Positions 16,135 through 38,774 of a DNA stretch of 64,000 nucleotides are shown piece by piece. Under the pieces are notes generated by a model, which had not been told where the DNA came from, searched no databases, and worked only from the letters and a program-made list of their open reading frames with translations. A program made the position numbers and the translations under genes. The number at the start of each line of letters is the position of its first letter. Positions within the stretch are counted from its first letter, which is position 1. This DNA comes from Fervidobacterium changbaicum (GTDB taxonomy: Bacteria > Thermotogota > Thermotogae > Thermotogales > Fervidobacteriaceae): positions 2,170,001 through 2,234,000 of the forward strand of contig NZ_CP026721.1 in NCBI RefSeq assembly GCF_004117075.1, in the 5' to 3' direction.

Positions 16135-16162
16135 TTGACATATTCGAATATTCTTATATAAT
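16135..16162 (+). promoter_or_regulatory. Promoter with an ArsR-type palindromic operator in the spacer
   Basis: TTGACA (16135-16140) and TATAAT (16157-16162) are perfect boxes 16 bases apart. Between them lies ATATTCGAATAT (16140-16151), a perfect 12-base palindrome of the kind bound by ArsR/SmtB repressors. A bound repressor here would block polymerase, giving autoregulation of the downstream regulator-permease-thioredoxin operon. Confidence 0.75.
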
Positions 16163-16196
16163 GAAATTAGAAAGTGTTAAGGAAGGTGGTGAAGAG

Positions 16197-16493
16197 ATGG
16201 ACAAACTTAGCGAGTACGCGGAAATGTTCAAAATATTAGGACACCCTGTTAGATTGCAGATACTTCTTTTACTAAGAGAACATCAAAGACTGTGCGTATG
16301 CGAGATGCTACCAAGAATCAGAATCAGTCAACCAAATCTTTCCCAACATCTGAGCATATTGAGGTTAAGTGGACTCATTGAATCTGAGAAAATAGGTGCT
16401 ACGGTGTATTATAGCTTACCGGAAAACGACTTTCTTTACAAACTGTTGGATTTACTAAAAGCCGAACAAAAGCAGGAGGTGCATTCGGATTGA
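16197..16493 (+). CDS. ArsR/SmtB-family metal(loid)-responsive repressor
   Basis: The 98-residue winged-helix protein contains ILGHPVRLQILLLLRE, then the metal-site helix LCVCEMLPR (two cysteines, the alpha-3 site of ArsR/CadC proteins) and the recognition helix SQPNLSQHLSILRLSGLI. An upstream in-frame ATG at 16161 overlaps the -10 box and cannot be used, so the ATG at 16197 after AAGGTGGTGAAGAG is chosen. It probably represses its own operon through the palindrome at 16140-16151 and is released by thiol-binding metal or metalloid. Its stop overlaps the start of the permease by four bases. Confidence 0.88.
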   Translation: MDKLSEYAEMFKILGHPVRLQILLLLREHQRLCVCEMLPRIRISQPNLSQHLSILRLSGLIESEKIGATVYYSLPENDFLYKLLDLLKAEQKQEVHSD

Positions 16494-17590
16494 GCGAAAT
16501 AAAACTCTTCGTTTTAATTGTTGCTGTATTCTTGTTATTTTACTTTGTTCCGTTTGACTCAGAGATAGTCCAGCAGAGCATCCTGAATGGTTTCAAGATG
16601 CTCAATGAGTACGCAAGGCAGCACGTTTTGTTATGCCTTGTTCCTGCTTTTTTCATTGCAGGAACTATTTCTGTGATGCTGAAAAAGGATGCCATACTGA
16701 AATTCCTTGGCCCTGATGCAAAAAGAATCATATCATATCCTTTAGCTGCAATTAGTGGTGCAATTCTTGCAGTTTGTTCTTGTACAATACTTCCAATCTT
16801 CGGTGGCATATACAAAAAAGGTGCTGGAATCGGTCCTGCCACAACCTTCCTTTTCGCAGGTCCAGCGATTAACATTGCAGCGATATTCTTAACTGCGCGC
16901 GTTCTTGGTTGGAACCTTGGAATTGCAAGAATGGTTGCAACAATAACTGCGTCAATACTAATAGGCCTTGTCATGGAAGCTATATACAAAGGAAAAGGCA
17001 GCGGAGGATTCGTGCAGACAGCAGAAGCGAATACAAGCAGTGCAAAAGCTATAGTATTCTTCGTACTTCAGCTTTTGTTCCTTGTATTCAGTGGACTTAA
17101 GATAAACCCCACAATCAAGAATGCAGGTTTAGGAATACTTGGAATATCAGTATTAAGCATGGCCTTCTTCGGCTTTGAAAGAGACGAAACAAAAGCATGG
17201 ATTGCTGAAACATGGGATTTTGCGAAAAAGATACTCCCGTACTTGTTCATAGGCGTCTTTCTTGCTGGAATAATAACGAAACTCTTACCGCAGAATGTAG
17301 TAGTATTTTTGCTTGGGAAAAATAACATACTTTCGACATTTTTCGCTTCCGTTATAGGTGCTTTTATGTACTTTGCAACGCTTACAGAAGTTCCAATTGT
17401 GCAAGCCCTTACACAGCTTGGTATGGCAAAAGGTCCTACTTTGGCACTACTTATGGCCGGCAACTCTTTGAGCTTACCGAGTATGATAGTGATTACTCGA
17501 CTTCTTGGTAAAAAGAAAGCATTCACATACTTTGGCTTAGTCATTCTCTTCTCAACACTGTTTGGAATGATTTACGGGCTATTGGCATAA
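16490..17590 (+). CDS. ArsP/DUF318-type permease
   Basis: The 366-residue integral membrane protein has about eight to ten hydrophobic segments and the family block AVCSCTILPIFGGIYKKG followed by GPATTFLFAGPAINIA, which contains the conserved Cys-Ser-Cys. A second family-like repeat (TLTEVPIVQALTQLGMAKG, then LLMAGNSLSLPSM) occurs in the C-terminal half. Members of this permease family export organoarsenicals or related thiol-reactive compounds; others are uncharacterised. The start is a TTG after AGGAGGTGCATTCGGA, overlapping the repressor stop. Position between an ArsR-type regulator and a CPKC thioredoxin supports a role in metalloid or thiol stress. Substrate is inference. Confidence 0.8.
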   Translation: MSEIKLFVLIVAVFLLFYFVPFDSEIVQQSILNGFKMLNEYARQHVLLCLVPAFFIAGTISVMLKKDAILKFLGPDAKRIISYPLAAISGAILAVCSCTILPIFGGIYKKGAGIGPATTFLFAGPAINIAAIFLTARVLGWNLGIARMVATITASILIGLVMEAIYKGKGSGGFVQTAEANTSSAKAIVFFVLQLLFLVFSGLKINPTIKNAGLGILGISVLSMAFFGFERDETKAWIAETWDFAKKILPYLFIGVFLAGIITKLLPQNVVVFLLGKNNILSTFFASVIGAFMYFATLTEVPIVQALTQLGMAKGPTLALLMAGNSLSLPSMIVITRLLGKKKAFTYFGLVILFSTLFGMIYGLLA

Positions 17591-17619
17591 ATCACTATCA
17601 AAACAGGAGGGATTCAAAA

Positions 17620-17859
17620 ATGGTGAAGAAGGTAGAAGTACTTGGTTCGGGATGTCCAAAATGCAAACAGACCGTAAAAATCATGGAAATGGCAATTGCA
17701 GAACTCGGCGTCGATGCAACAGTTGAAAAAGTAGACGACATTAACGAGATAATCTCAAGAGGAGTAGTTGCGACACCAGCAGTAGCCATCGATGGAAAAG
17801 TTGTTCTAAGTGGAAAAGTTCCGACGTTGGAAGAAGCAAAGACGTTGCTGAGCAAATAA
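17620..17859 (+). CDS. Small thioredoxin-like redox protein (TM0996/MTH895 type)
   Basis: A 79-residue thioredoxin-fold protein with active site SGCPKCKQT (residues ~10-17) and the cis-proline segment VVATPAVAIDG. It is the compact glutaredoxin-like type common next to DUF318 permeases. It probably reduces a disulfide in the permease partner or handles a thiol-bound metal. The ATG follows ACAGGAGGGATTCAAAA, 29 bases after the permease, and the gene ends before a terminator, so it is the last gene of the operon started at 16135. Confidence 0.85.
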   Translation: MVKKVEVLGSGCPKCKQTVKIMEMAIAELGVDATVEKVDDINEIISRGVVATPAVAIDGKVVLSGKVPTLEEAKTLLSK

Positions 17860-17882
17860 TTCACAATATTGGTTAATAACAA

Positions 17883-17910
17883 CCACGCCACTACCCGGTG
17901 GCGCGGTTTG
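17883..17910 (+). terminator. Terminator after the redox operon
   Basis: CCACGCCAC and GTGGCGCGG form a nine-base stem with one mismatch around TACCCG, followed by TTTGATTT. Confidence 0.7.
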
Positions 17911-18100: not shown

Positions 18101-18126
18101 AAATCCCCCGAGAGTTGGGGGGGTTT
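18101..18126. terminator. Bidirectional terminator between the remnant and the Type III operon
   Basis: AAATCCCCC and GGGGGGGTTT form a hairpin. On the minus strand the hairpin is followed by ATTTTTTA, so it can end the Res operon; on the plus strand it ends the remnant gene. Confidence 0.7.
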
Positions 18127-18152: not shown

Positions 18153-21119
18153 CTACCAGTTGCTTTGAAATTCCTGATTGACACGGTTCACGAGATCATC
18201 AATGCTGTTGAGCCAGTAATCAGCATATTTCCTCGGCGTTTCTATGTTTTGGTCTGATTTATAAAGATACAGCTTGACTTTAACTTCATACCCTTCTGCT
18301 TTGAACTTCTTGGGAACACTATTTTCAACGAAGAGTTCTTCGAATCCATCTATCTTTCTTTCAGCATCAGTATGCTCTGTCCCTTTTGGATCGACAAAAA
18401 CAACAAGGTACTTACTTCCTTTTCTAAACCAGAAAATGAAATCTGGGTAGAAATAAGCCTCTTCGCCTTCCTTAGTGCGATAAGGAACGAAAACTTTATC
18501 CTTTTTCTCCACTATCTTGCTGAATAGCCACCAATCTACCTCAAACCTATCGGAAACGGACATGAGGTCATCGATAAAATTAATCTCACTTCTCTCTTTG
18601 ATAATGTCCAGTATCTTACCAGCTAAAGCTTCTCTATTCAAGGCTTCTAAAACTGGGATGTAGTAATGCTCTTGTATGAACCTTATTAGTAAATCCATAC
18701 TATCCTCCATAACTACAGGTACAAATGATTGTCTTTTTGGGCCAAAGTATACTTCTTTTATTGACTCACTTACTCTTTCTACTTTCTTCTCTGGAAGTCT
18801 AATTACGATCCTTTTGTAGTGCTGAATGTACTCTTCATCTTCTGAAGACAACGTCAGCTCGTATTTGTAACCAAACTCTCTTTCAATAGCTTTGACAACC
18901 GTACGAATTGTGTTGTACCATCCAATATGTTTGTTCGTGTTCCTTTCGATGATAAAGAATCTTATTTTGTTTGCTTCGTCAAATATTTCTCTCAGCAGTT
19001 CTATTTTTTTAGCAGCACTCTTGCTCTTCAAGAAGAACATAAAGTAAAGCATTTCGTCTGACATATTCATAACAACGTTTCTCGCATCTATGTAGTCGCT
19101 TTCAGAGATTTGTATTGGATGAAACCGTTGTATTGCGTCAAAATCGAGATCTGTAGGCACCTTTACGAATACGGGTATGAATACCCGGTTGTTAGCAATT
19201 CTACGTTCATTTTTGTACAATCTTACCTCAGTTCCAGAGCTTTCTTTAAGCGTCTTAACACCTTCAAGAATTTTCTGTATTACATCCTTTTTGGTTCCCC
19301 AAACATAAAGTGTTTCTATCGGTTTTATTATGTTAATGTACCTTCTGAACTTCTTGTCCATTTCCAATCTTTTTCTGTCGCCATTTTTTGTTGGTTGGAT
19401 TCTCAATCCCCTTCCTATTGATTGGAGCACAAATTTTTTAGCATCCTCCCCTGTTCCTATATTGACAAACACAATAACATTTGGCCTGTTTGAATCCCAA
19501 CCTTCGTAGAATGCCCTTGAACCTATTAATATGTTTATATACTCATGTTCGTCCAAGGTTGCAAAGTACTCAGTGTTTTCAAAACGCTCCTGAATCCTTA
19601 GGCCAAACTCTTGGACGAGCGTGTCAACAAGTTTCTTGGCTTCACCAACTTTGACAAGAGCAAATGGCTTGTCGCTTGTCATCAGCTTGATGGCAAATTC
19701 TTTTCCTGAAGTGGATGTAATCATTTCAATCTCTCCGGGAGCTTCTGCGTTAAAAACTTCTCGCAGTACATCACCGGGTGTTACCTCGGAGAGTTCGTTC
19801 TTGTTAAACCTCGGGTCTTCTTCATCATCAAATGGATGATTTGGGATTGAGTTGATTAACGACTCTTTCGCCTCGAGGAAAGGCTTTCCATTGAGGTAGT
19901 TTTCAAAACCTTCTATTGAGGACAAAAACCTCAACCTTTCAAATATTAGTTTAACATCTGAATCCTCAACGTTTACTGAGTTTCCGAGGAACACGGCAAG
20001 GGGCGAATGATACTCAACCATTAGTTCTTCGTTGGACCTTAATTCTCGTGACTTCTTTTTTAGGTATGCTAAAAGTATGAGTATTTTTAGAAAAATAATT
20101 TCTTTCTCTTCTATGGTGAAGTCTTTGCTGTCTTTAGAAATCTTAGCAGACAATTTAATGTTTTCATCGAATATTCTCAAAACTTTTCCATAGCCCTCTC
20201 GAATGTATGAACTAAGGTTGAATTCATACACTGTCATTAAAATATCGCGGATGTCAGTAAACGTAGCAGAGAAGTTGAAAAGAAATCCATTTCTTGACAA
20301 TATCGAAAAGTACTGCTGGCTTTTGCTGGATTCCTTATCACCTTTGTGAGCTTCGTCAAGTATGATGTACCAATTCCCGTGGTTGTCGTAGTCCTTAAAG
20401 TCAAGGGTTTTGTCCCCTTGTCTGTCTTTAATGTTATTCGAGCGATAGTAGAAAACTGGAAAAACCAGAAAGTCGTTTAATTCTTTTGCTTTACCGAAGT
20501 CCTTTAATTCAAATAGCTTAGGTGTCTTACCGGTGCTAAATTTGTATTCTGTGAAGTGTCTCTCAAATTGTTCAATCAGGTCATCCCTATAGGTCAGGAA
20601 TAGAATGTCCTTTTTTGGCATTAGTCCACGTTCCATGTATGTTGCCAAGATGTCAATTAGTTTTACTATCAATAGCGTCTTACCACTGCCAGTTGCCATC
20701 CAAAATCCCATTCTGTTGCAGAAGTTTCCAAATGATATCCTGTCCTCAACGCTGTAGAAGAAGCTGCTTAGGATACTAAAGATTTCACTATCTGAGACTT
20801 TAATACTCAACAATTCATCAACGTCTAAGTCATACCTTTCTAAACAATAATCTTTGAACTCTTCCCAAAAAGACAATTTGTCGGCATCTTTGACTGCATA
20901 GTAATAATACAGTGCACGAATTGCGAATTCTATTGCTTCCACTTGGAAATCCCAAAGCCTTTTCTCTTTAGAGAAACCTTCAATGTCTATATCTTTCCAC
21001 TCTCTTGGAAGTTCTTCATAGCTTGGTGCGTATTCGTCTATGAATTCTCTAAGTAAAGGTGTTATTTTTACCTCGTCGTTTCTATTCCTTGTTTTTCTTC
21101 TTGTCACTGAAGCTGGCAT
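18153..21119 (-). CDS. res: Type III restriction enzyme, Res (helicase-nuclease) subunit
   Basis: The 988-residue protein has SF2 helicase motifs and a C-terminal nuclease: Walker A ATGSGKT at 142-148, ILDEAHKG (DEAH 255-258), a motif III-like NFSATFTD, GSRAFYEGWDSNRPN and the arginine-finger motif QSIGRGLRIQP. The PD-(D/E)XK nuclease near the end has D893, D910 and K912 (in YPDFIFW and VFVDPKG). This is the full Res architecture, so it should translocate or diffuse along DNA and cleave with Mod. The ATG is four bases after the Mod stop. It is the last gene of a six-gene operon that also holds a second helicase and an SMC-like ATPase, which ordinary Type III systems lack. Confidence 0.93.
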   Translation of the reverse strand: MPASVTRRKTRNRNDEVKITPLLREFIDEYAPSYEELPREWKDIDIEGFSKEKRLWDFQVEAIEFAIRALYYYYAVKDADKLSFWEEFKDYCLERYDLDVDELLSIKVSDSEIFSILSSFFYSVEDRISFGNFCNRMGFWMATGSGKTLLIVKLIDILATYMERGLMPKKDILFLTYRDDLIEQFERHFTEYKFSTGKTPKLFELKDFGKAKELNDFLVFPVFYYRSNNIKDRQGDKTLDFKDYDNHGNWYIILDEAHKGDKESSKSQQYFSILSRNGFLFNFSATFTDIRDILMTVYEFNLSSYIREGYGKVLRIFDENIKLSAKISKDSKDFTIEEKEIIFLKILILLAYLKKKSRELRSNEELMVEYHSPLAVFLGNSVNVEDSDVKLIFERLRFLSSIEGFENYLNGKPFLEAKESLINSIPNHPFDDEEDPRFNKNELSEVTPGDVLREVFNAEAPGEIEMITSTSGKEFAIKLMTSDKPFALVKVGEAKKLVDTLVQEFGLRIQERFENTEYFATLDEHEYINILIGSRAFYEGWDSNRPNVIVFVNIGTGEDAKKFVLQSIGRGLRIQPTKNGDRKRLEMDKKFRRYINIIKPIETLYVWGTKKDVIQKILEGVKTLKESSGTEVRLYKNERRIANNRVFIPVFVKVPTDLDFDAIQRFHPIQISESDYIDARNVVMNMSDEMLYFMFFLKSKSAAKKIELLREIFDEANKIRFFIIERNTNKHIGWYNTIRTVVKAIEREFGYKYELTLSSEDEEYIQHYKRIVIRLPEKKVERVSESIKEVYFGPKRQSFVPVVMEDSMDLLIRFIQEHYYIPVLEALNREALAGKILDIIKERSEINFIDDLMSVSDRFEVDWWLFSKIVEKKDKVFVPYRTKEGEEAYFYPDFIFWFRKGSKYLVVFVDPKGTEHTDAERKIDGFEELFVENSVPKKFKAEGYEVKVKLYLYKSDQNIETPRKYADYWLNSIDDLVNRVNQEFQSNW

Positions 21120-21123
21120 ATAA

Positions 21124-23685
21124 TCACCACCATATCAAGTTGCTTATGTACTCTACAGGGATTTTATCGAAATCTATCCTGCCTGTTTTCTCTAAAACAA
21201 CGTAATTCTCTGAAATCTTGATTATTTTCTCGCCTAAAACATTTGATAAAGTCTCGGCAATGTCAATGCTTTTCTCCGGATACAGCTTTTCAAAAGATAT
21301 CTTAAATTCGTTGTTTTCTTTTTTAACAACATCTTCCACAAATTTAGGTGCTCTCATGAAGATATACTCGCTAAATTCATCTTTTCCAGCTGAAGGTCGC
21401 AAGTATATATCAGCGTGCTCGTATTTTGTATTTCTTAGCACGTCCTCATATTGTTCGAGTTCGTAATATTTGAAAAATCCACCTGCATTCTTTTCGTTAT
21501 ACTTATCCTTAACATCCTGTTCTTTCGAAATACCGGACTTATCGTATGCTAATACCTTCTTTATTCTTGGTAGTATAACCGTATAGAAATGCTCTCCCAT
21601 TTCTATTCCTATCCACTTTCTCTTAAGCTTGTGGGCAACCGCTATTGTTGTTCCAGAACCAAGGAAGAAGTCCATTACGAGGTCACCTTCATTGGACGTG
21701 GATTCAATAACACGCTTTAAGAGAATTTCAGAGTTTTCGGTAGGGAAACCCCAAGATGTTGAGTAACCATAAATATCCGTCCAATTCGAATCCAAAACTT
21801 CTTTGATTTCTTCCTCCACCCAATACTTAGGAACTGGGACGTCAGAACCACATTGCGGACAACCATTCCACAACCCTTTCGTTTTATCGTGGATATAACC
21901 ACAATTTCTGCATTCCAGAATCAATTTTCCTTCACTTATCATTTGATCTATTCTCTCTTGAGAAAACTTCCAGTGTTTACCTTCCGGTGGAGAAAGGTGT
22001 TTTCCAAAAAATACTTTAGGTGTGCCTTGACCAGATGAGTCTCCCATGTGTCTCCAGAAACCTTGCCTCTTTTCGGATCTTAATTTATATGGGTTCACAA
22101 ATGAAAATGCGCTACTTACAGCATATAAAAAGATCGTATCTAACCCTTCGGGTAGCTTTTTAACATTGTTTTCCATAACATTTTTCTTAAATCTTCTAAC
22201 TGTTATCTCATTTCTAAAGTTTTTTGCTTCAAAAATCTCGTTCATCACTCCCCGTACTATCCAATTACCGTTGTAATCACATCTTACAAAAATACTACCA
22301 CTATCCTTTAAAAACTCGCGAGCTAACGTTAACCTGTTCTCAAGCATGGAAGCCCATGTGGCGTCTTTGTATTTAACGTTATACAAGTAATCAGCATCTT
22401 GTTCTTTGTTAAATGGAGGATCAATATATATTGTTTGAACTTTTTCTTTGAACTTCGGCAAAATTGTTTTCAGTGCTTGGTAGTTCTCACTGCGAATGAG
22501 TATTCCGTCAAGAGCTTCGTCTAAATTATCAAAAAGGGATAGAATTTCAGGTTCTAAGTCTTTAAAGTATCTTGTATCTATAGGCAAATATTTGTACTTT
22601 TTGTTCTTTGTTTCGAAAAGATCCGTGTTCAGAACATCTCCAAACGTAAATCCTTCTTCTACGATGCCAAGTTCGACCCATTCTTTTACTTGCAGCCCTA
22701 AGTTCGGGTGATTCGCAATTTTGTTAATGATTTCATTGGGGAGTCTATCTATTGTGATAACATAGTTACTGTTGAAGACAAACTTAGGCTTGTTCCAAAT
22801 CTTTACTAACTCATTTTCGAATTGAGCTATAAATTCAATTATTTTCCCCGCTACATGCTTAAATGTTTGTATTTCCATTACTCTTTTCGGTGTCCAAATA
22901 TTCTCTGAATCAAACATGTATTGATATACAAACATATCAAGTTGTTCTTTGAGGAACTTTTCTGCATCCTTGTTTATGAAATAATCCACTTCAGATTGCT
23001 TATTAAATATGCTTATAGCCTTCTCCACATCATCCGTAGTTACTCTCTCAAGCATCTCTGCAATCTCATGTGACTGAATCTGCTTAGATTGTGCTCTTAC
23101 CTGCCTGACTATGTCCTCAACATTTGTTTGCTTATTACCCTCTTTGTAGTAACCTTCAAGTACTATTCTGCCTTTTTCATCTATTCCCTTGAATGTGAAG
23201 TTCATCTCTTTTTTCTCATTAGCCTTTTTGTGCTCCAGGTTACTGACATCGAACCAGAATACAATATCAGTACCGTTAATCCCTTTGATTTTTACTTCCA
23301 TGCTCTGATATCTTTTTTCTGTTTTAACGTAATAAAGCATTCGTGTCTTCCAAAAAAGCGCAACATCGTTTTCTGGATCATATATGCGTTCATATATCTT
23401 CTCACTCCAAGAAGTGTATGTAAAGTAGATCGACCCACTTTCAGAAAAGTATCGTTTGAAGAAAGTATATAGTTTCTCGAACAGTTCTTCTCTGAAATCT
23501 TCTATGCCTTTAGTTTCAAGTTCCTGAGTTATTAGATCAGCAAGTTTTGGTTTAACGACATTGTTGTAATATGCGCTTTTGAATTTCATGAGGTTGATGT
23601 ATCCTGATTTACCCTCAATTTGAGCACCAATGAATAGATCCTCAAGGGCTTTATAGAAATCCGATTCGAACTTACTCATTTCCAT
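21124..23685 (-). CDS. mod: Type III DNA methyltransferase, Mod subunit, with long N-terminal extension
   Basis: The 853-residue protein carries methyltransferase motif IV IDPPFNKEQD (DPPF 422-425) before motif I MDFFLGSGTT (672-680), the beta-class order of Mod N6-adenine methylases. A zinc-ribbon-like set C592/C595 and C609/C612 lies within the target-recognition region. The first ~380 residues form an alpha-helical extension not needed by ordinary Mod proteins of about 600-650 residues. Its start overlaps the 163-aa gene by 14 bases and its stop is four bases from res. It should modify one strand of an asymmetric site; specificity cannot be read. The extension may be the contact point for the extra operon proteins (inference). 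Confidence 0.92.
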   Translation of the reverse strand: MEMSKFESDFYKALEDLFIGAQIEGKSGYINLMKFKSAYYNNVVKPKLADLITQELETKGIEDFREELFEKLYTFFKRYFSESGSIYFTYTSWSEKIYERIYDPENDVALFWKTRMLYYVKTEKRYQSMEVKIKGINGTDIVFWFDVSNLEHKKANEKKEMNFTFKGIDEKGRIVLEGYYKEGNKQTNVEDIVRQVRAQSKQIQSHEIAEMLERVTTDDVEKAISIFNKQSEVDYFINKDAEKFLKEQLDMFVYQYMFDSENIWTPKRVMEIQTFKHVAGKIIEFIAQFENELVKIWNKPKFVFNSNYVITIDRLPNEIINKIANHPNLGLQVKEWVELGIVEEGFTFGDVLNTDLFETKNKKYKYLPIDTRYFKDLEPEILSLFDNLDEALDGILIRSENYQALKTILPKFKEKVQTIYIDPPFNKEQDADYLYNVKYKDATWASMLENRLTLAREFLKDSGSIFVRCDYNGNWIVRGVMNEIFEAKNFRNEITVRRFKKNVMENNVKKLPEGLDTIFLYAVSSAFSFVNPYKLRSEKRQGFWRHMGDSSGQGTPKVFFGKHLSPPEGKHWKFSQERIDQMISEGKLILECRNCGYIHDKTKGLWNGCPQCGSDVPVPKYWVEEEIKEVLDSNWTDIYGYSTSWGFPTENSEILLKRVIESTSNEGDLVMDFFLGSGTTIAVAHKLKRKWIGIEMGEHFYTVILPRIKKVLAYDKSGISKEQDVKDKYNEKNAGGFFKYYELEQYEDVLRNTKYEHADIYLRPSAGKDEFSEYIFMRAPKFVEDVVKKENNEFKISFEKLYPEKSIDIAETLSNVLGEKIIKISENYVVLEKTGRIDFDKIPVEYISNLIWW

Positions 23686-24163
23686 AGTCTATTTCCTCCT
23701 GTTCTAAGGATTCAAACCCGAGACTCTCATATGCTTCCTGAATTCGAAGCTCTAATTCCTCGAGGAATTCCTCTGAGCTTTTGCAATTTTGAAGCAGGTT
23801 ATATAGTTCATCAACACCTGTGTTCACAAATTCTTCGAAAACAGCATACATATCCTTCGATGATTTCTTCTCACTGCCCTCTGCATCGTTCTTAGAAGTC
23901 AGTTCATATATTGCGGCAATGTATTTTTGGAAGTCCTTGTACTCATCTTTTTCAAGGAATTCACCACGTGAAACGTCTACTTTATCACCATTTGAAACTC
24001 TGCGTTCGCTAAGATAAAAACCATAAAAACCTGCAAGTAGATAAAGTTTTATCTTTCGTACCTGCGATAAAATTTCTTTCGTCCTGGAGATTATCTCATC
24101 TAATTTTTTGTTTCTTTCAGAATCAAGCTTAAGTATTATTGTTTCTGCCCCCATTGTATTCAC
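23672..24163 (-). CDS. 163-residue helical protein of unknown function in the Type III/SMC operon
   Basis: I do not recognise this family. The product is acidic and helical: an N-terminal helix pair (LDSERNKKLDEIISRTKEIL), a more hydrophobic segment (KIKLYLLAGFYGFYLSERR), then a long acidic C-terminus. There is no signal peptide, and no catalytic motif is evident. The ATG used is at 24163; an alternative is at 24154. It starts six bases after the ATPase gene and overlaps mod by 14 bases, so it is translated together with both. Its position suggests an adaptor between the ATPase and the Mod-Res complex, which is inference only. Confidence 0.65.
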   Translation of the reverse strand: MNTMGAETIILKLDSERNKKLDEIISRTKEILSQVRKIKLYLLAGFYGFYLSERRVSNGDKVDVSRGEFLEKDEYKDFQKYIAAIYELTSKNDAEGSEKKSSKDMYAVFEEFVNTGVDELYNLLQNCKSSEEFLEELELRIQEAYESLGFESLEQEEIDYGNE

Positions 24164-24169
24164 AGCTCC

Positions 24170-26152
24170 TTACTTTATTTTTATAACATTTGTCACGTAA
24201 TAACTTCCTCTGTTTTGTGGTTCGAGATAATGAATAGTTGATGAATAGTTCATAAGTTCTTTCTCTAAGCTGTTGTATTCCTGGTCAGTCATTGTGATAA
24301 TGATTTGTCTTTCTTCGGAAAGTTTTGAGAGAAGATGTATGAGTTCATAATATGCTTCTCCTGAAATGTTAGTCAGGGGTCTATCTATAAAGATGGGAAG
24401 CTCAACACCTGCTACTTGATGTATTGCTAAAGCAAGAGCCAAAGTTAAAATGGAACGTTCGCCTCCGGAAAGCTCTTTAATTTGAACTTGGCCAAATTTG
24501 TCCGTGACCGTAAGATCGAAGTTTTCTGATAGTGAAATGTTTTCTATAAGTTCTTTTTTCCACATTACTCGGTTAATAAATTCTCTCATATGTTTCGTAA
24601 TCTCCGTACATATGCGTTTACGAACCCTCTCAACGCTCTTTTGGATAATATCTTCCACTTTTTGGACAAAATCGAGCTGTTTTTTGATAGAATCCAATCG
24701 TTCGTTTTCAGTAAGGTTCTTATCGAGCTCTTCCTTGTACTTGTTAAGACTGCTTACAGTCTCCTTTATGTTGTTCTCAAGGTCAAATATTTTTCGTTGT
24801 ATGTCTGACTTAAAACTTTCTAAACGTTCCCTTTCTTTATGGTAGTACTCTATTTTGTTAGATATATCTTCAGGAAGAAGTTTTCCAAGTTCTTCTATAC
24901 GCTTCTGTATATCTGCTATTTCTTTTTCGAGTGTTCCTATTCTATCATTTGTTCTCCTTACCTGGAGCATGTTGTTCCTAATGTTTTTCTTCAGGACTCT
25001 GTGATAATCTTCCGTAATAACAACATGGTCTGAATTTAAAAGTGCCTTGAGTTGTTCAAGGACATGCTCATGAAGCCGGCTGCCACAAATGGCGCAGGTT
25101 TTTTCAGATAACATCTTCTCAATTTCACTTTTTGGCAACATGATAGGTATGGATATGGTACTTGTACTTCTCATATTGTACGCTTCGTCGATAGCATTCC
25201 AGCCAAAGACATAACAACCAAGATCTAAGAGTAGTTGTGCTTTAACTCTGAGTAGTTCACTCAATTCGTCACGCTTTTTCGTTTCTTCTTTTACAAGATC
25301 TTCGAATTCAGACTTATACTTCTCATAGTTTCTGAGGGCTTCCAGCTTTTGGTATATTTCTCTAAGGTCATCGTTTATCTGAGCTTCTTGTTGTTTTGCT
25401 TGTTCAAGTCTTTCACGAAGTGATTTGAGAGTTCTCTCAGTTTCCTCTATCTGTTTTGAAAGCTGCTCTATAAGCCTATTATTTTTCTCTTTATCTCGTA
25501 GGTCTTTATAAATTAACTTCGTCCGCACGTTTCCAAGAAAATTTAGAAAAGCTTCAATATCTGCTATTTTTGAGAACTTTTCAACTGTAGGTTTAATATG
25601 CATGCCTCTGACTTCCTTAAGGTAAACATCCAGACTTTCACCATCAAAGAAAAAGTGTTCACGTAACGCTTTTGGAAAGCGCTTCTCTATTTCTAATTCT
25701 TTGTCTGCAATTGAAATAGAATCATTGACATGGACACTAAGTGTCAGCCCATCCAAGCTTGGACTTACGCGACCATCAGAAACCGAGTATTTGTAGCTTC
25801 GAATGACCCTGAATGTCTCATATGAATCTCTGAAAAGCAACTTTACTGTGGTCCTATATTCACCATCAGATACTAAACGCACTTTTGACAAAATGCTTGC
25901 TGAGGATTGTTGATATTTTCCTATTGAACTCGGAATTTCTGACGTCGTATCAGGAGGGTAAGGACGTCTGGATGAGAAGAGTTCTTCACCAAAAAGCCCC
26001 CAGTTTACGGCTTCAAGGAATGTCGTCTTGCCCGACCCCATTTTTCCAACGATAACGTGTAAATCTCCAATTTGGCTATCATTTTTTGTAAAAAGAAACC
26101 TTCCCTCAACATACTGACGATAGTTAGTAATTTCAACACTCTCAAGGCGCAT
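24170..26152 (-). CDS. DndD/Rad50-like SMC-type ATPase
   Basis: This 660-residue protein has Walker A GKMGSGKTT (36-44), the motif HFFFDGESLD (166-175) typical of DndD-type ATPases, and a coiled coil at about 217-300. A hinge carries a zinc-hook-like pair C353 and C356 (KTCAICGSRL), and a second coiled coil spans about 395-510. ABC signature LSGGERS (561-567) and Walker B LPIFIDRPL (585-593) follow. Length and motifs resemble DndD of the phosphorothioation system and Rad50, rather than condensin. The ATPase probably binds or senses DNA structure and drives the partners by ATP hydrolysis. No DndC or DndE gene is nearby, so sulfur modification is not indicated. It lies 51 bases downstream of the 71-aa gene. 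Confidence 0.82.
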   Translation of the reverse strand: MRLESVEITNYRQYVEGRFLFTKNDSQIGDLHVIVGKMGSGKTTFLEAVNWGLFGEELFSSRRPYPPDTTSEIPSSIGKYQQSSASILSKVRLVSDGEYRTTVKLLFRDSYETFRVIRSYKYSVSDGRVSPSLDGLTLSVHVNDSISIADKELEIEKRFPKALREHFFFDGESLDVYLKEVRGMHIKPTVEKFSKIADIEAFLNFLGNVRTKLIYKDLRDKEKNNRLIEQLSKQIEETERTLKSLRERLEQAKQQEAQINDDLREIYQKLEALRNYEKYKSEFEDLVKEETKKRDELSELLRVKAQLLLDLGCYVFGWNAIDEAYNMRSTSTISIPIMLPKSEIEKMLSEKTCAICGSRLHEHVLEQLKALLNSDHVVITEDYHRVLKKNIRNNMLQVRRTNDRIGTLEKEIADIQKRIEELGKLLPEDISNKIEYYHKERERLESFKSDIQRKIFDLENNIKETVSSLNKYKEELDKNLTENERLDSIKKQLDFVQKVEDIIQKSVERVRKRICTEITKHMREFINRVMWKKELIENISLSENFDLTVTDKFGQVQIKELSGGERSILTLALALAIHQVAGVELPIFIDRPLTNISGEAYYELIHLLSKLSEERQIIITMTDQEYNSLEKELMNYSSTIHYLEPQNRGSYYVTNVIKIK

Positions 26153-26203
26153 AAACTACATCCCCTTTATATATGAGAAGTTAAATCCAGCTTCAGTAAA
26201 GGG

Positions 26204-26419
26204 TTAAACTAACTCATTCTCAACAAATCTGCTTATCTTTTCCCTGACTTTTTCCAACAATTTTCGCTCATTGCTCTCTGAAAATCTTGCCTCACTAAGG
26301 TAATAACTCAGGAGTTCAAGTATGAAGTTGGCTACAATTTCACTATCATTTCCAAAGTGTTGAGATGCCTCATCTACTAATATATCATAAAGAAACTCGG
26401 AAATTTTCGAGGTACTCAT
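26204..26419 (-). CDS. 71-residue helical protein in the Type III/SMC operon
   Basis: A small acidic, all-helical protein (ISEFLYDILVDEASQHFG, VANFILELLSYYLSEARF) with no recognised motif. The start at 26419 overlaps the helicase stop by four bases, the usual sign of translational coupling. It is too short, and lacks the basic residues, to be a DndE-type DNA-binding protein. Its role is unknown; a regulatory or bridging subunit between the helicase and the ATPase is plausible from its position. Confidence 0.6.
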   Translation of the reverse strand: MSTSKISEFLYDILVDEASQHFGNDSEIVANFILELLSYYLSEARFSESNERKLLEKVREKISRFVENELV

Positions 26420-27777
26420 ACTATGTACCCCCTTTCAATATTGTTAACCACCTGAATTGCTTCATACAAATTTTCAGCGCACTGAGCCATGATTTCAACT
26501 CTTGAAAACTCAACTTCTAAGATGCGCTTATAAACACGGTTATCTTCAAAACCTGTAAGCTTTGGAAGTACAATAACATCATACACATATGCATAATCTT
26601 TTGCAGGAGAAATTCTTAATACACGTCCCAGTCTTTGGATGTATTCTCGTGGATTTGTAGAACTTGAAAGTATTATTGCTTTATCAACGCCTGGAACATC
26701 GACACCTTCGTCTAACATTTTTATCCCTACGAGCACCTCAATCAACCCTGATTCAAAAAGTTTTAAAATATGTTTCCTTTCAGCATATGAGAGCTCTTGA
26801 ACAAACTTCTGGGCTATTACACCTTCATCTTGTAAAATTTCCATTACCCTGTCAATAAGCTTTTCGTCACAAAAGACTATTGTCCTCTCCACATTTCCAT
26901 TACTTTTGATTTCGTTTAGGATATATTTTAGCGCTGAGTACTTCGAGCTTGAGGTCTTCAAGATCTTGCTTCGTTGAAATAGTAGTTTTCTGATCTCTGG
27001 GTCGTCTTCAAGGTCGGCATAAGTAATGTTGTCCAAATTTCGAACCCTTTTCACTATTTTTTCTGTCAGAATTCGGTATTTTCTCATTTCATCATCAGTT
27101 AAATAACACGGAATTGGATAATAATAGTACGGTGTTAGGTACGTTCTTTGAGTGTCAGGATTTATATTGTTCACGGCCTTGCACAAAGAAAATTCATAAA
27201 TCACATCACCAAAGAAATAGCGCAAAAATCTGTTTCCAATCTCATCATACATTCGCTTGGGTGTAGCGCTGAGCCCTAATCTATAATTGAATGCGTCTGA
27301 GAGATTTTCTCTTCTCATTTCAGAACCAATCCCGTGAACTTCATCGGCAACAATCGTGAGATTAATTTCTGAGTTTGAAGGCAATGAGCTGATCAGTTGA
27401 TTCACTTTTTCACCAACTAACGTGTTGTGAGTTGATAGGAAGATCAATCTTTTAAAGATACCTATTCGAAGTTTCCTTAACGCATTTTCAGCTTTTTCAT
27501 GCCATTTGGCAGCTTTTGAGTGGCACTCTAACACGACGTCAACGTGAAGACCGTACTTTTTAATTGAACTCTGCCACTGGTTAACTAAATGAGCATATGG
27601 TGCTGAGATAAATATTACATGTTTTTGCTGATCTTGGATTAAACGCTCCAAAGCTCCAATTGCGGTAAATGTTTTTCCTGTACCAGTTGCCATCGATATT
27701 ATTCCTCTGCAATTATTAGCAAACCAGGCATCAATAGCTTCTATTTGATGTTGGTGTAAAGTTATGTTTCCCAACAA
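26416..27777 (-). CDS. SF2 DEAD/DEAH-box helicase, first gene of the Type III/SMC operon
   Basis: The 453-residue protein has Walker A ATGTGKT (30-36), a DEVH box at 145-148 (ADEVHGIG), SATPKRM, GIKMLDEGVDVPG and the motif VI QRLGRVLRISP. There is no nuclease or extra domain. It is close in size and layout to stand-alone Res-like helicases linked to phosphorothioation restriction, but here stands with a Type III system. The start is a TTG after AGGGGGAGAA, downstream of a good promoter at 27837-27866. It likely unwinds or translocates on DNA in concert with the DndD-like ATPase. Confidence 0.85.
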   Translation of the reverse strand: MLGNITLHQHQIEAIDAWFANNCRGIISMATGTGKTFTAIGALERLIQDQQKHVIFISAPYAHLVNQWQSSIKKYGLHVDVVLECHSKAAKWHEKAENALRKLRIGIFKRLIFLSTHNTLVGEKVNQLISSLPSNSEINLTIVADEVHGIGSEMRRENLSDAFNYRLGLSATPKRMYDEIGNRFLRYFFGDVIYEFSLCKAVNNINPDTQRTYLTPYYYYPIPCYLTDDEMRKYRILTEKIVKRVRNLDNITYADLEDDPEIRKLLFQRSKILKTSSSKYSALKYILNEIKSNGNVERTIVFCDEKLIDRVMEILQDEGVIAQKFVQELSYAERKHILKLFESGLIEVLVGIKMLDEGVDVPGVDKAIILSSSTNPREYIQRLGRVLRISPAKDYAYVYDVIVLPKLTGFEDNRVYKRILEVEFSRVEIMAQCAENLYEAIQVVNNIERGYIV

Positions 27778-27836: not shown

Positions 27837-27866
27837 ATTATACACCTAATTTTCCCCACCTGACAA
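27837..27866 (-). promoter_or_regulatory. Promoter of the six-gene Type III/SMC operon
   Basis: On the minus strand TTGTCA (27866-27861) and TATAAT (27842-27837) are separated by 18 bases, 60 bases before the helicase start. No other strong promoter is apparent within the operon, whose genes overlap or are spaced by at most 51 bases. Confidence 0.6.
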
Positions 27867-28006: not shown

Positions 28007-28789
28007 TTATAACAAAATCTCCCTAATCAATTCCCCGCTGCAGTGGAGTGGGATTATTTGTTCAATGGAGAGTTGTCTGAGGATAGAAACAACCATTTGA
28101 ATCTTTTCTCTTGGTGATTTGTACAGATGGAAGCCACCGATTAGAAGTCTGACTTTCTTGCCAAACAGTTCAATAGCATCCTGAACAATGTTTATTATCC
28201 CCCTGTGTGCACAGCCGGTTATTAGGATTATACCATCACCTTCATCGATGACGAGGTTCAGCTCTTCTTCAAAAAAGTCTCTGACTTTTTCTCCATTCTT
28301 TATAACCTGAAAATTCGGATCTGGCTCCTCAAAGTTATTCTTCATCCAGGCTGGTCCAAATGCGTAGATTGAGTTTGTAATTTTGACAAGTTTTTCGTTT
28401 ATAATCACAAACTCAAATGCATCCTTTATAGATTCCCAATCTATTCCTGTGAACCTCTCGCCGCTGTATTTTGGTAGGAAGGCATCTTTCCTTAAGAAGA
28501 CTTTGAATTTCTTTCCGAATGTAGTCAGGTACTTCAGCCCTCCTGCGTGATCGTAGTGGCCATGGCTTATGACGATGTATTCTACTTTCGAAAGATCTTT
28601 GCCAAAAATGGATGCATTCTTAATGAATACATCAGTCGTTCCAGTGTCAAACAAGACCGTTGGTTCACCGGATTTTTCGATAAGTATGGAGAAACCGTGC
28701 TCGGAATGGAGCGGTGGGTTGAGTTCGTCGTTGCAGAGAATTGTTAGTGTTGATGAACTAATATTAATCGTTGTTGACGCATTTTTCAT
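28007..28789 (-). CDS. Metallo-beta-lactamase-fold hydrolase (dihydropterin-synthase-like branch)
   Basis: The ATG at 28789 after TGGAGGTTTCAGC gives 260 residues. The metal motif SHGHYDHAGG is followed by a histidine in TGCAHRGIIN and a C-terminal IGGFHLYKSP and IIPLHCSGE, which fit the archaeal/Thermotoga-type hydrolases often named after 7,8-dihydropterin-6-methyl-aminobenzene phosphate synthase. The physiological substrate is uncertain. The gene stands alone, with a terminator of the upstream same-strand gene 80 bases before it. A longer reading to 28912 has no ribosome site. Confidence 0.82.
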   Translation of the reverse strand: MKNASTTINISSSTLTILCNDELNPPLHSEHGFSILIEKSGEPTVLFDTGTTDVFIKNASIFGKDLSKVEYIVISHGHYDHAGGLKYLTTFGKKFKVFLRKDAFLPKYSGERFTGIDWESIKDAFEFVIINEKLVKITNSIYAFGPAWMKNNFEEPDPNFQVIKNGEKVRDFFEEELNLVIDEGDGIILITGCAHRGIINIVQDAIELFGKKVRLLIGGFHLYKSPREKIQMVVSILRQLSIEQIIPLHCSGELIREILL

Positions 28790-28870
28790 GCTGAAACCTC
28801 CAGAAGATTTAGAATTTTCATTTAATTGCACCATCACTATTATACTACTTCGATTGAAAGTTGGAAGAAA

Positions 28871-28891
28871 CGCCCTGGGAATCCCAGGGCG
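28871..28891 (-). terminator. Terminator after the 28925 gene
   Basis: CGCCCTGGG and CCCAGGGCG form a perfect nine-base stem with a three-base loop. On the minus strand it is followed by TTTCTT. Confidence 0.8.
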
Positions 28892-28924
28892 CTGAATTCT
28901 TTGATTATTCACCTATCAGAAATT

Positions 28925-30640
28925 TTACTCGGCATATTCACTTCTTGGTTCAACATAGAGGATTACACTTATCATTCCGTTGATAATCTCTGAATAGATG
29001 CCATTTTTTTCATAGAGTATATCCACTACGTTTTCCGGTGCAACATCGTAGTAAGAAACGTCTGTGTGGATGATAACATAAACTGTACCATCGTTCATAA
29101 CTACACTTTTCACGTCGATGTCGTCGGGTATATAATCGATATAACCGTATTCATACAAAGTTCCTAATGTAACATTTTGTGGTCTCTCGTTGTTAATGAG
29201 GTCGGCACAAGTGTTAAATATGTAAGCTATCTTATCAGCCAATTCGTATTCGAGTTCAGAGTAGTAGGTCTCATCTGTGTACTCTTCTTCGTATTCCTCT
29301 TCATATTCATCATAATATTCTTCTTCGTATCCCTCTTCTGCATCCTCTTCAGATTCTTCGTAATACTCTTCCTCTTCGTAATCCCATTCTTCTTCGTACT
29401 CTCTTCTCGAAGCTCGCTCGGCTATCTTGTTCAAGAACCAGACTAAGTTGTTAAATTCACCAGATATAAAGAGATTGCCGGTGTCCAGTACTTCTGCTTT
29501 CATGACGATTTTTGCGGATTCTTCTTCGTCTGAGTAGTTCAATTCAAACAAAAGGTAGCTATTGTCATTTATCTTTTTCAAGGAAGACTTGTCGATTTCA
29601 GATGGATAGATATTGATAACGCGGTTTTCAAGGGAAACTTGGTAGCCTTGATCTCCGAGTAGTTTTTTCATGAATGAAGCAGTAAGTTTTGCATCTTGTT
29701 CGTACTCTGGCTTGTAAATTCCAGAAAATGTAAAATATCCGTCAATAGTTAGGGAGAATGAGACAGCTCTGAAAATTTCGATGAAAGAAAACAGTTTTTG
29801 GATTTCTTCCGGAATATCGACGTCCAGGTCTGCAGTTAACAAGGGGCTGTCGCCCATGTTGCTTGTATCGAATGCGATTATAATGTTAGCGCTGTCGATG
29901 TAAGATAGGTCTCTCAAAATGCCTCTTTTTGCAAGCGCGAGCTTTTTCTCGTAGTTTGAATATGTTTTAACAATAGTCGCTTCAAATCGGTATTTTTCAT
30001 CTTTCTTAGTAATGATAAGCTCGTCAGAAATCGGAATTCCAATGTAATCACCAGTAATGTAGAGAAGCTCTCCTATAAGGGACTTTTTGTATGTTTTAAA
30101 ATAAACTACAACACCGTCCTTTGTTGACAGCGGTATGCTCGAGATTTTTCCAGTAAGCATGTCTTTTGTGAAGGTGGAGATATCTTTATTAAAGCAAAGA
30201 TAAATACTATCCTTGGAACGTATGATGTAAAGTTTTTGGCTTTTAAGTAAGATAATGGAAGGTTCATTAATCGTTAGTTTAGGAACTTCGATAGTTGAAT
30301 CAAACAGCGAGCTAAGTACGTATCCAAGGCTCTTATCACCGATGTTCCCTGGAAGAACGATTCCTAAAGGTAAGCCGAGCAAATTTTTGAGTGAAAATTC
30401 TGCACTTTCATCCAGATTTAAAAACCCCAGCGCATTTCCTAAGGATAGTTTTCCATAAACAGACACTACTGTTGGAATCCCCGCTTCTTGAAAGACAGGA
30501 AGCCAATCCTGGTTTTCAAGTACACTCAGGTCAAGATACATGACAAAGTCGGAGTTTCCAGGAACAATCACAGAAATTGCAAAAAGATAAAGCGAGGAAA
30601 AAAGAACAAGCAAAGCAACCGTAAAAAGTTTACCTTTCAT
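28925..30640 (-). CDS. Secreted or anchored protein with a Glu/Tyr-rich acidic tract, unknown function
   Basis: From the ATG at 30640 (AAAGGGGG upstream) the protein has 571 residues, beginning with a signal peptide (KLFTVALLVLFSSLYLFA). The middle is beta-rich with no recognised domain. Around residues 420-465 lies an extraordinarily acidic tract of Glu, Tyr and Asp (for example EEEYYEESEED), and the C-terminus resumes an ordinary folded pattern. Thermotogales encode many such lineage-specific periplasmic proteins. The acidic tract could bind cations or act as a linker. Single-gene unit with its own terminator. Frames starting further upstream to 30718 lack a ribosome site. Confidence 0.65.
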   Translation of the reverse strand: MKGKLFTVALLVLFSSLYLFAISVIVPGNSDFVMYLDLSVLENQDWLPVFQEAGIPTVVSVYGKLSLGNALGFLNLDESAEFSLKNLLGLPLGIVLPGNIGDKSLGYVLSSLFDSTIEVPKLTINEPSIILLKSQKLYIIRSKDSIYLCFNKDISTFTKDMLTGKISSIPLSTKDGVVVYFKTYKKSLIGELLYITGDYIGIPISDELIITKKDEKYRFEATIVKTYSNYEKKLALAKRGILRDLSYIDSANIIIAFDTSNMGDSPLLTADLDVDIPEEIQKLFSFIEIFRAVSFSLTIDGYFTFSGIYKPEYEQDAKLTASFMKKLLGDQGYQVSLENRVINIYPSEIDKSSLKKINDNSYLLFELNYSDEEESAKIVMKAEVLDTGNLFISGEFNNLVWFLNKIAERASRREYEEEWDYEEEEYYEESEEDAEEGYEEEYYDEYEEEYEEEYTDETYYSELEYELADKIAYIFNTCADLINNERPQNVTLGTLYEYGYIDYIPDDIDVKSVVMNDGTVYVIIHTDVSYYDVAPENVVDILYEKNGIYSEIINGMISVILYVEPRSEYAE

Positions 30641-30817
30641 ATCCATACCCCCTTTCCAAAGATCGAGATAGCTTAACCCACCTGCTCTTTTTGAGTTGTT
30701 ATCGTTGAGAGCGTTCATTATACTTACTTTTGTCAGCTCAGCCAGTTACGATAAATTCCTTTTCAAGAATTTCCTAAACGTATTATACCACTCTTTTTTA
30801 CGAATTTTTAAAAACAA

Positions 30818-37200: not shown

Positions 37201-37431
37201 TATCCTCTTTAAAGACTTCCTTAAAACTCCCTCAAGGATTACTTCTTTAAAGCTTTCTCTGAATTTTTGACTTTCCCCATATTCAGGTTCTAATGAAGAA
37301 GTGAACGATATTATTTCTTTTGTATCCTCAGGGTTATCTTTGTTTTGCCTATAAATCTTCCATCCAAGCCTTTGAAGCTGAAAGAGAAATGGATTTTCAA
37401 CATAATGTTCTTCATCCAATTTAGTTACCAT
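34225..37431 (-). CDS. hsdR: Type I restriction enzyme R subunit
   Basis: The 1068-residue protein has an N-terminal nuclease (VPDIVLFVNG and LVVVECKSP: the PD...ExK core), helicase Walker A WHTQGSGKSLTMMF, VTDRKDLEKQL, IMIDEAHRTQY, AFTGTPIEKTE, NMLITGFDAPVEQ and QAIARVNRVY. The C-terminus is helical, contacting HsdM. All motifs are intact. It cuts DNA far from unmethylated HsdS sites after ATP-driven translocation. The ATG at 37431 lies 8 bases after TGAGGAGG; its start overlaps the end of hsdS by 11 bases. Confidence 0.95.
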   Translation of the reverse strand: MVTKLDEEHYVENPFLFQLQRLGWKIYRQNKDNPEDTKEIISFTSSLEPEYGESQKFRESFKEVILEGVLRKSLKRINPWIEDDQISEVVRRITTPQSNSLLEANKEIHDLLLENTSVSENRKTGEKSPTVKFIDFKNPHNNSFIAISQFKVNITGTEKHIVPDIVLFVNGLPLVVVECKSPAVADPISEAITQLMRYCNRRGAIEGNEKLFWYNLFVVATSNQIAKYGTITSEYEHFVEWKDPYPFSLSDVNPDGNVTSQQILIHGMLSKENLLDLLHTFTIFKEDPKSKMIKVVARYQQFRAVKKMIKRLKEGKTPDEKGGIVWHTQGSGKSLTMMFMVRELYHNPEFGNYKVVFVTDRKDLEKQLNETSRSVGFTVKLARSIQELKELLKTDTPELVMAMVHKFQERELKSEFPVLNTSPNILIMIDEAHRTQYKLLGANLRKALPNATKIAFTGTPIEKTEMTFGDYIDKYGIKQAVEDGVTVEIVYEGRVHNAELSDEEAANAKFEDVFKDADKDTKRMIMGRFTWRAYLEAEEVIRDKARDMIEHYITHVFPNGLKAQVVAVSRCAAIRYKKALEEALKEKIYELEKENNSKIDLETLKKLEVGVVISGAQNDRPEYHPYTDPNVHERIIKSFKLPFDKVDENGINGNVGILVVQNMLITGFDAPVEQVMYLDNVIKGHNLLQAIARVNRVYKNKSCGFVVDYVGVLKHLKEALAIYADEDIDEISQVVRNKAKSVDELKLNHRRIEEFFEKYKIKNWRQNIDECIDILVDEEIRDEFIALVRQFNRSMDAVLPDPEALKYVHDLKILGFIKESARNRYRDDKLSIKDTSNKIRGIIEEYLHSQGIDPKIPPTPLFEDKFLEKLHKEPSKARTQELQYAIVEHIEKHWEEDPELYERFSDRLKRLLEEYKENWDVLYDELEKLRGEMKKGREVEQTFGLDPKKEMPFFGLLKSEIFGKKPVSELTDSEIDFLVNTTKDIIEIISREAQNVDFWENAVKQKRLKSHITSQLLKKISSSTLKNNDTVSEETVPYMVNSITDIVFGKRNEIAQKLIELAYHHFRK

Positions 37432-38719: not shown

Positions 38720-38774
38720 AGTCATACCTCCATTTAATTCCTTTGGTTTTTGGCTCATTCGGATCATTTTTGGC

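What the first reader, a model, noticed from the sequence alone, without database searches (positions are those of the whole stretch)
18153..27777. Six-gene operon combining Type III restriction with a DndD-like ATPase, a second helicase and two orphan small proteins
Seen: one promoter (27837-27866), then helicase, 71-aa protein, SMC-type ATPase with FFFDGE motif and zinc hook, 163-aa protein, Mod and Res. Genes overlap or are at most 51 bases apart, with no other obvious promoter. Known: Type III systems need only Mod and Res; DndD-like ATPases and stand-alone helicases belong to phosphorothioation or Rad50-type systems, but no DndC, DndE or sulfur gene is present here. Inference: the added module is an extra sensor or effector coupled to Type III restriction, or a self-standing ATPase-helicase defence linked to it. 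I know of no named system with this gene set.
Basis: partly seen in the sequence, partly recalled or inferred. Interest (0 to 1): 0.82.

Follow-up and report, generated by a model that had tools for sequence, protein, structure and literature searches.

The report
Pbe defence module with Type III restriction
This bacterium carries a known four-gene virus-blocking module (Pbe) that has lost its sulfur-marking partner and, in this copy, its own DNA-cutting domain, and is instead fused into one operon with a complete methylation-based (Type III) restriction system; if the methyl mark now tells the module what is 'self', it is a new pairing of two known defences.

Summary
In detail: six same-strand genes (27777-18153), gaps -14 to +51 bases, one good promoter, one terminator. 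The interpretation needs correcting. The 'orphan' four-gene block is a Pbe module (the published CxC ABC-ATPase/DndE-type system), in exact order: PbeA helicase, PbeB (71 aa), PbeC (zinc-hook ATPase), PbeD (163 aa; predicted double ribbon-helix-helix). So most of the set is a named system. What is unusual is the partner. Published Pbe systems mostly go with phosphorothioation; here there is no DndC anywhere in the genome, and the module runs into a Type III mod-res pair. All 7 Thermotogota genomes with Pbe (of 103) have this six-gene order, as one clade in PbeA, Mod and Res trees; none of about 50 Pbe loci in ~800 Clostridia and archaeal genomes does. In this copy PbeA has lost its N-terminal HKD nuclease, leaving Res as the operon's only recognisable nuclease. 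Mod relatives (FnoB1III, TmeBIV) were reported to make m4C at CGCC, without mention of Pbe. Most likely: Mod's methyl mark replaces sulfur as the self-signal for a Pbe replication block, and Res does the cutting. Gating is inferred, not shown. New variant of a known kind.

The parts
27837..27866 (-). promoter-like site TTGTCA-18-TATAAT, about 60 bases before the first gene
   Evidence: 11 of 12 matches, best of region; sequence
26416..27777 (-). PbeA-type SF2 helicase without the N-terminal HKD (PLD) nuclease domain; 453 aa
   Evidence: PADLOC PbeA PDLC02707 469 bits but only model positions 250-668 of 672; TIGR04095 dnd_restrict_1 384 bits (below its 600-bit cut-off); alignment with HKD-bearing homologues
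26204..26419 (-). PbeB-position small protein, 71 aa, predicted two-helix hairpin
   Evidence: position and size; weak profile match to other PbeB (16%); AlphaFold
24170..26152 (-). PbeC: DndD/CxC-type ABC ATPase with CxxC zinc hook (CAIC), 660 aa
   Evidence: PADLOC PbeC PDLC02717 309 bits; motifs; nested among PbeC in tree
23672..24163 (-). PbeD (DndE-type), 163 aa, predicted two beta-alpha-alpha (ribbon-helix-helix) units
   Evidence: hhalign with 20 canonical PbeD: 97.5%, E 8e-12; AlphaFold pLDDT 80; Foldseek
21124..23685 (-). Type III Mod, beta-class amino-methyltransferase (DPPF before FxGxG), 853 aa; ORF overlaps pbeD by 14 bases
   Evidence: PADLOC MTase_III PDLC03638 1092 bits over full length; EcoP15I Mod and 6k0w relatives in the PDB
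18153..21119 (-). Type III Res: SF2 helicase plus C-terminal PD...DxK nuclease motif, 988 aa
   Evidence: PF04851; REase_III; invariant P892 D893 ... D910 P911 K912 in 7 homologues
18105..18122 (-). terminator-like hairpin followed by T run, just past res

Best explanation
A composite antiviral operon: a Pbe module (PbeA-B-C-D) whose modification partner is no longer phosphorothioation but an adjoining Type III restriction-modification pair. Shown by sequence: identity of the genes, their fixed order in one clade, absence of DndC, loss of the HKD nuclease from PbeA in this copy, intact helicase, ATPase, methylase and Res nuclease motifs. Inferred: Mod (probably with Res) methylates one strand of a short asymmetric site in host DNA (m4C or m6A). 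That mark protects the host from Mod-Res cleavage and also serves as the self-signal that keeps the Pbe complex off. On unmarked invading DNA the PbeC-PbeD clamp (ABC ATPase plus ribbon-helix-helix DNA binder) loads and PbeA translocates, blocking replication without cutting, as described for archaeal PbeABCD; Res supplies the double-strand breaks. Because PbeD does not change when Mod's target domain is swapped, Pbe probably senses the state of the DNA through Mod-Res or replication rather than reading the same sequence itself.
For: Module identity. Same six genes in same order in all 7 Pbe-bearing Thermotogota genomes, PbeD-Mod ORFs overlapping in 6 of 7. Pbe and this Mod co-occur in Thermotogota (7 Pbe, 10 Mod, 7 both of 103; Fisher 6e-9, ignoring relatedness) but not in 399 Clostridia (1 genome with both, not adjacent; p = 1). 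The 8 Type III-linked PbeA form one clade (100/100); Pbe-linked Mod and Res also form clades (100/100). No DndC in any of the 7 genomes. HKD-minus PbeA occurs in 4 of 8 Type III-linked loci and 2 of 54 others (Fisher p 0.0017, relatedness ignored). Pbe without PT genes and near methylases was anticipated (PMC6459918, PMC10853773). Mod family makes m4C at CGCC in F. nodosum and T. melanesiensis (PMC8259958). Decay is one-sided: PbeC is broken in L019 and L020 while Mod and Res stay intact, as expected if Pbe depends on Mod and not the reverse.
Against: No functional data on the combination. HKD-plus PbeA with Mod-Res exists (L017-L020), so Res as replacement nuclease is not obligatory; the HKD loss is only one or two events in this clade. 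Mod and Res alone suffice for methylation in the reported FnoB1III work, so Pbe is not needed for the mark. Sharing of one operon does not prove shared self-recognition. Two other HKD proteins exist elsewhere in the genome. The Thermotogota pattern may be a single event inherited or transferred as a block.
Confidence: 0.55

Rival explanations
1. Two independent defences that merely share an operon: Pbe distinguishes self on its own or is triggered by infection, Mod-Res restricts separately, and co-transcription only ensures joint expression and transfer.
For: Mod-Res of this family stands alone in 3 other Thermotogota genomes and on a Rhodothermus plasmid, and the Mod family occurs without adjacent Pbe in 18 of 399 Clostridia; Pbe stands with other partners or none elsewhere; Mod's target domain is exchanged without change in PbeD.
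Against: Order and tight packing of all six genes kept across three genera while PbeC diverged to about 30% identity; Pbe in this clade never seen without Mod-Res apart from one degenerate locus (L025).
Confidence: 0.25
2. Pbe proteins are accessory subunits of the Type III enzyme (extra motor or clamp that helps Mod-Res find inverted sites or slide), not a separate effector.
For: HKD-less PbeA has no recognisable nuclease motif of its own; operon overlap PbeD-Mod; an SNF2 ATPase is a known accessory neighbour of other Type III m4C systems (PMC8259958).
Against: That SNF2 protein is not PbeA (only generic helicase motifs; Pfam). Mod-Res is intact where PbeC is broken (L019, L020), so Pbe is not essential to it. 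FnoB1III Mod plus Res methylate in E. coli without Pbe.
Confidence: 0.12
3. Pbe is a back-up that kills or arrests the cell when Type III restriction is inhibited by the invader.
For: Rakesh 2024 proposes suicide action as one model for such systems (PMC10853773).
Against: No toxin or nuclease left in this PbeA; no data on triggers.
Confidence: 0.08
4. The HKD-less Pbe part is a decaying remnant with no function; only Mod-Res matters.
For: PbeC broken in 2 of 7 loci, and a deletion joins PbeC to Res in L025.
Against: In the window, L021 and L022 all four Pbe ORFs are full length with intact ATPase, hook and helicase motifs despite deep divergence.
Confidence: 0.07

Closest known systems
PbeABCD of Haloterrigena jeotgali A29 (DndCDEA-PbeABCD; PMC6459918)
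   Same: Four genes in the same order and of similar size (PbeB 66 vs 71 aa, PbeD 152 vs 163 aa), SF2 helicase, ABC ATPase; profile and tree membership
   Different: No DndCDEA, no phosphorothioation; PbeA lacks the PLD/HKD domain; fused to Type III mod-res
CxC ABC-ATPase/DndE systems with cytosine methylases (Rakesh 2024, PMC10853773)
   Same: Zinc-hook DndD-clade ATPase with DndE-like partner; methylase instead of sulfur modification
   Different: Their methylases are C5 or circularly permuted N4 enzymes; a Type III Mod-Res pair is not mentioned in the main text; hook here is CxxC
Type III m4C restriction systems FnoB1III and TmeBIV (PMC8259958)
   Different: The paper describes them as plain mod-res pairs and does not mention the four genes upstream; the window's target domain is only 50% identical to L017's
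Type III systems with a 5' SNF2 ATPase (Eco86II, BspHIV; PMC8259958)
   Same: Extra helicase-like gene directly 5' of mod
   Different: In the plasmid example read here the protein is a 987-aa SNF2 helicase unrelated to PbeA beyond generic helicase motifs; no PbeB/C/D

Membership tests
PbeABCD | four co-directional genes A-B-C-D | tested here: met
PbeABCD | PbeC: DndD-clade ABC ATPase with zinc hook | tested here: met
   CAIC hook, LSGGER; nested among PbeC
PbeABCD | PbeD: DndE-like, two ribbon-helix-helix units | tested here: met
   97.5% to canonical PbeD; beta-alpha-alpha twice in the model; DndE itself only weak (29%; Foldseek 4lrv prob 0.30)
PbeABCD | PbeB small protein | tested here: inconclusive
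   position and size fit; profile match weak (16%, E 0.0016)
PbeABCD | PbeA with HKD/PLD domain fused to SF2 helicase | tested here: not met
   helicase only; HKD present in L017-L020
PbeABCD | works with phosphorothioation genes | tested here: not met
   no DndC in own genome
PbeABCD | blocks viral replication without cleavage | not testable with these tools
   needs infection assay
Type III restriction-modification | beta-class Mod with DPPY/F and FxGxG motifs | tested here: met
Type III restriction-modification | Res with SF2 helicase and PD-(D/E)xK nuclease | tested here: met
   ResIII domain; invariant PD...DPK
Type III restriction-modification | one-strand methylation, cleavage between two inverted sites | not testable with these tools
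   needs methylome and cleavage assay; relatives reported in PMC8259958
Dnd (DndABCDE) | DndC sulfurtransferase | tested here: not met

The most novel reading that the evidence does not exclude
A methylation-gated Pbe system: the Type III mark (m4C or m6A) has replaced phosphorothioate as the self-signal for the PbeC-PbeD clamp, allowing PbeA to drop its own nuclease because Res cuts, so one methylase licenses both a cutting and a non-cutting defence.
Probability: 0.4. Interest if true: 0.72.

Novelty: new variant of a known kind. Interest (0 to 1): 0.5.

Why it matters
Xiong 2019 left open whether PbeABCD without sulfur genes can pair with methylation. This locus makes that question directly testable in one cloneable ~10 kb operon, with natural variants that have lost the HKD nuclease, broken PbeC, or swapped Mod's target domain. 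It also shows that a Type III family already characterised biochemically (FnoB1III, TmeBIV) is, in its native genomes, only the end of a larger operon.

Tried and rejected
DISARM, BREX, Lamassu, Wadjet: no PADLOC model of these outscored Pbe for the ATPase or helicase. Dnd phosphorothioation: no DndC in the genome. The extra ATPase of Eco86II-type Type III systems being PbeA: rejected on a plasmid-borne example. HKD loss strictly tied to Type III: rejected, since four Type III-linked PbeA keep HKD and two haloarchaeal HKD-less PbeA have other neighbours. The Rhodothermus 145-aa protein before mod being PbeD: no PADLOC hit, not pursued. The genome-contig scan did not return Thermotogota loci already known to exist, so it cannot be used for prevalence. 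Searches failed on input or missing record. PbeB could not be tied to other PbeB beyond position.
Full report
WHAT IS THERE. Six ORFs on the minus strand, 27777 to 18153, with gaps of -4, +51, +6, -14 and +4 bases, a near-consensus promoter at 27866-27837 and a terminator-like hairpin at 18122-18105. The first gene starts with TTG behind AAGGGGGA. The 230 bases upstream, up to an unrelated metallo-beta-lactamase-like gene, have no room for a further nuclease domain.

THE MODULE IS PBE. The 660-aa ATPase matches PADLOC PbeC (PDLC02717, 309 bits), ahead of LmuB and DndD (about 105 bits); the helicase matches PbeA (PDLC02707, 469 bits), but only over model positions 250-668. TIGR04095, the phosphorothioation-system restriction enzyme domain, covers the helicase nearly end to end, although below its curated cut-off (384 against 600 bits). 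PbeABCD was described in haloarchaea as a four-gene cassette with small proteins of 66 and 152 aa (PMC6459918); Rakesh et al. identify PbeA as HKD nuclease plus SF2 helicase, PbeB as a small protein, PbeC as the CxC ABC ATPase and PbeD as the DndE cognate with two ribbon-helix-helix units (PMC10853773). The 163-aa protein matches a profile of 20 canonical PbeD at 97.5% probability (E 8e-12) and is predicted as two strand-helix-helix units plus C-terminal helices (pLDDT 80). The best structural neighbours that make sense are small chains of the F-plasmid relaxosome (prob 0.69) and E. coli DndE (4lrv, prob 0.30), none significant by E-value. The 71-aa protein is PbeB by position and size only; it is predicted as a helical hairpin. 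In a 67-sequence tree the window's PbeC lies inside PbeC, with those that carry a CxxC hook, and apart from the hookless DndD clade.

THE PARTNER IS TYPE III. Mod matches PADLOC MTase_III PDLC03638 over its full length at 1092 bits, with motif IV DPPF before motif I FLGSG. Res has a ResIII helicase domain and an invariant C-terminal PD...DPK. Murray et al. (PMC8259958) report FnoB1III of Fervidobacterium nodosum as a Type III system making m4C in CGCC, needing both Mod and Res for methylation, and predict TmeBIV of Thermosipho melanesiensis (CGCC) from methylome data. Contigs G069 (1,948,941 bp) and G080 (1,915,238 bp) have the lengths I remember for those two genomes, and their Mod target domains are 79% identical, as expected for one specificity. 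That paper files FnoB1III among plain mod-res systems; it does not mention the Pbe genes that lie directly upstream in L017.

CONSERVATION. In 103 Thermotogota genomes PbeC occurs in 7, and all 7 have the same six genes in the same order and strand (in L020 PbeC is truncated and PbeB was not resolved). Mod of this family occurs in 10; the other three lack Pbe. In 399 Clostridia genomes (about 23 true PbeA) and 394 Halobacteriota genomes (about 30) no Pbe locus examined has this Mod-Res; partners there are DndCDE, SspC-type genes, cytosine methylases, or none recognised. In Clostridia, 18 genomes have this Mod family and one of them also has PbeA, 240 kb away. The 8 Type III-linked PbeA (7 plus a degenerate locus in the MAG bacterium GBS-1, L025) form one clade with full support, and the Pbe-linked Mod and Res each form a clade apart from Pbe-less relatives. 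So the pairing probably arose once and has been kept as a block, partly moved by transfer: within the window's genus, G069 carries the version close to the other genus while the window and G070 carry the HKD-less version.

LOSS OF THE NUCLEASE DOMAIN. L017-L020 PbeA are 696-698 aa with an intact HxK...GSxN motif (PLDc_2 in Pfam). The window, L021, L022 and L025 start at the helicase (451-462 aa). HKD-minus PbeA is found in 4 of 8 Type III-linked loci against 2 of 54 others (p 0.0017, without correction for relatedness; the four come from one or two losses). One of the two others, on a Halorhabdus plasmid, is followed by an McrB protein and a protein with an McrC-like PD...ExK motif. This suggests, but does not prove, that HKD becomes dispensable when another restriction nuclease sits in the operon.

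DECAY AND TARGET-DOMAIN SWAPS. PbeC is split by a frameshift in L019 and has lost its C-terminal ATPase half in L020, a single-contig genome, while Mod and Res are intact in both. If L020 is T. melanesiensis BI429, a CGCC methylome is reported there although PbeC is broken, so Pbe is not needed for the mark. L018 and L019 are 92-96% identical in PbeA, PbeB and PbeD and 90% in Res, but only about 30% in Mod's target domain. The window's target domain is closer to L021 (72%) than to its overall nearest relative L022 (51%), whereas PbeD follows L022 (61% against 32%). Mod specificity therefore changes without PbeD, which argues against PbeD reading the Mod site and for sensing through Mod-Res, DNA state or replication.

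SETTING. The operon lies between an ArsR-permease-thioredoxin-like cluster (16161-17891) and a metallo-beta-lactamase/acidic-protein pair (28007-30718). The same site in a sister species (G068) holds a Type IIG enzyme, an HKD-Snf2 helicase, UvrD-like helicase pieces and Mrr instead. A Type I restriction system lies a few kb further (34225-42519). This is a defence hot spot.

MECHANISM. Shown: composition, conservation, motif integrity, absence of DndC. From established knowledge: archaeal PbeABCD halts virus replication without cleaving DNA and spares PT-marked DNA; Type III enzymes cut between two unmodified inverted sites. Inferred: the Type III mark serves as the self-signal for Pbe, Pbe blocks replication and Res cuts. 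The main rival is two independent defences sharing an operon.

NOVELTY. Xiong et al. already suggested that PbeABCD might pair with methylation and saw methylase genes near 155 of 320 solitary PbeAC; Rakesh et al. list C5 and N4 methylases. A complete Type III mod-res pair in the same overlapping operon, with loss of HKD, was not found in the papers read here (supplementary tables could not be read). Hence a new variant of a known kind. Limits: small number of independent events, prevalence sampled in four phyla only, genome identities of G069 and G080 from remembered lengths.

Noticed in passing
window 34225-42519 (-): Complete Type I restriction system (HsdM 40075-42519, HsdS 37421-38767, HsdR 34225-37449) with a Schlafen/AlbA_2 gene (38775-40097) between hsdM and hsdS, followed by a YgjP-like peptidase gene.
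   Followed up: partly
L117 (G068 C1:783500-803400): Sister species without Pbe holds at the same chromosomal site a Type IIG enzyme (1192 aa), an HKD-Snf2 helicase (1135 aa), UvrD-like pieces and an Mrr gene: a defence hot spot.
   Followed up: partly
L053, L056, L057, L059, L061, L062, L064, L065, L066, L072: In Clostridia, PbeABCD sits next to an SspC-like gene (about 1200 aa; in L057 also a cysteine desulfurase), i.e. with single-strand phosphorothioation (Ssp) genes, in 10 of about 22 loci.
   Followed up: partly
L079:6047-16214: Haloarchaeal plasmid (same length as NC_021913, Halorhabdus tiamatea) with HKD-less PbeA, PbeC, PbeD followed by an McrB protein (925 aa) and an McrC-like protein (442 aa, PD...ExK); a transposase-like gene sits between PbeA and PbeC.
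   Followed up: partly
L080:3106-7574: HKD-less PbeA (471 aa) preceded by a 998-aa helicase with a weak ResIII match and a C-terminal helix-hairpin-helix; function unknown.
   Followed up: no
L018/L019 Mod; window/L021/L022 Mod: Target-recognition domain of Mod exchanged between close relatives while the rest of the operon stays alike.
   Followed up: yes
L025:11632-14332: In MAG bacterium GBS-1 a deletion joins PbeC to the C-terminal third of Res, removing PbeD and Mod; PbeA is very close to L022 (recent transfer or mis-binned contig).
   Followed up: partly
L051 (Athalassotoga plasmid pATS2): Stand-alone Mod-Res of the same family whose res is interrupted by an IS256 element.
   Followed up: no
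window 28925-30718 (-): 597-aa protein with a highly acidic Glu/Tyr-rich stretch and no Pfam family above cut-off, conserved in the genus next to the defence site.
   Followed up: no
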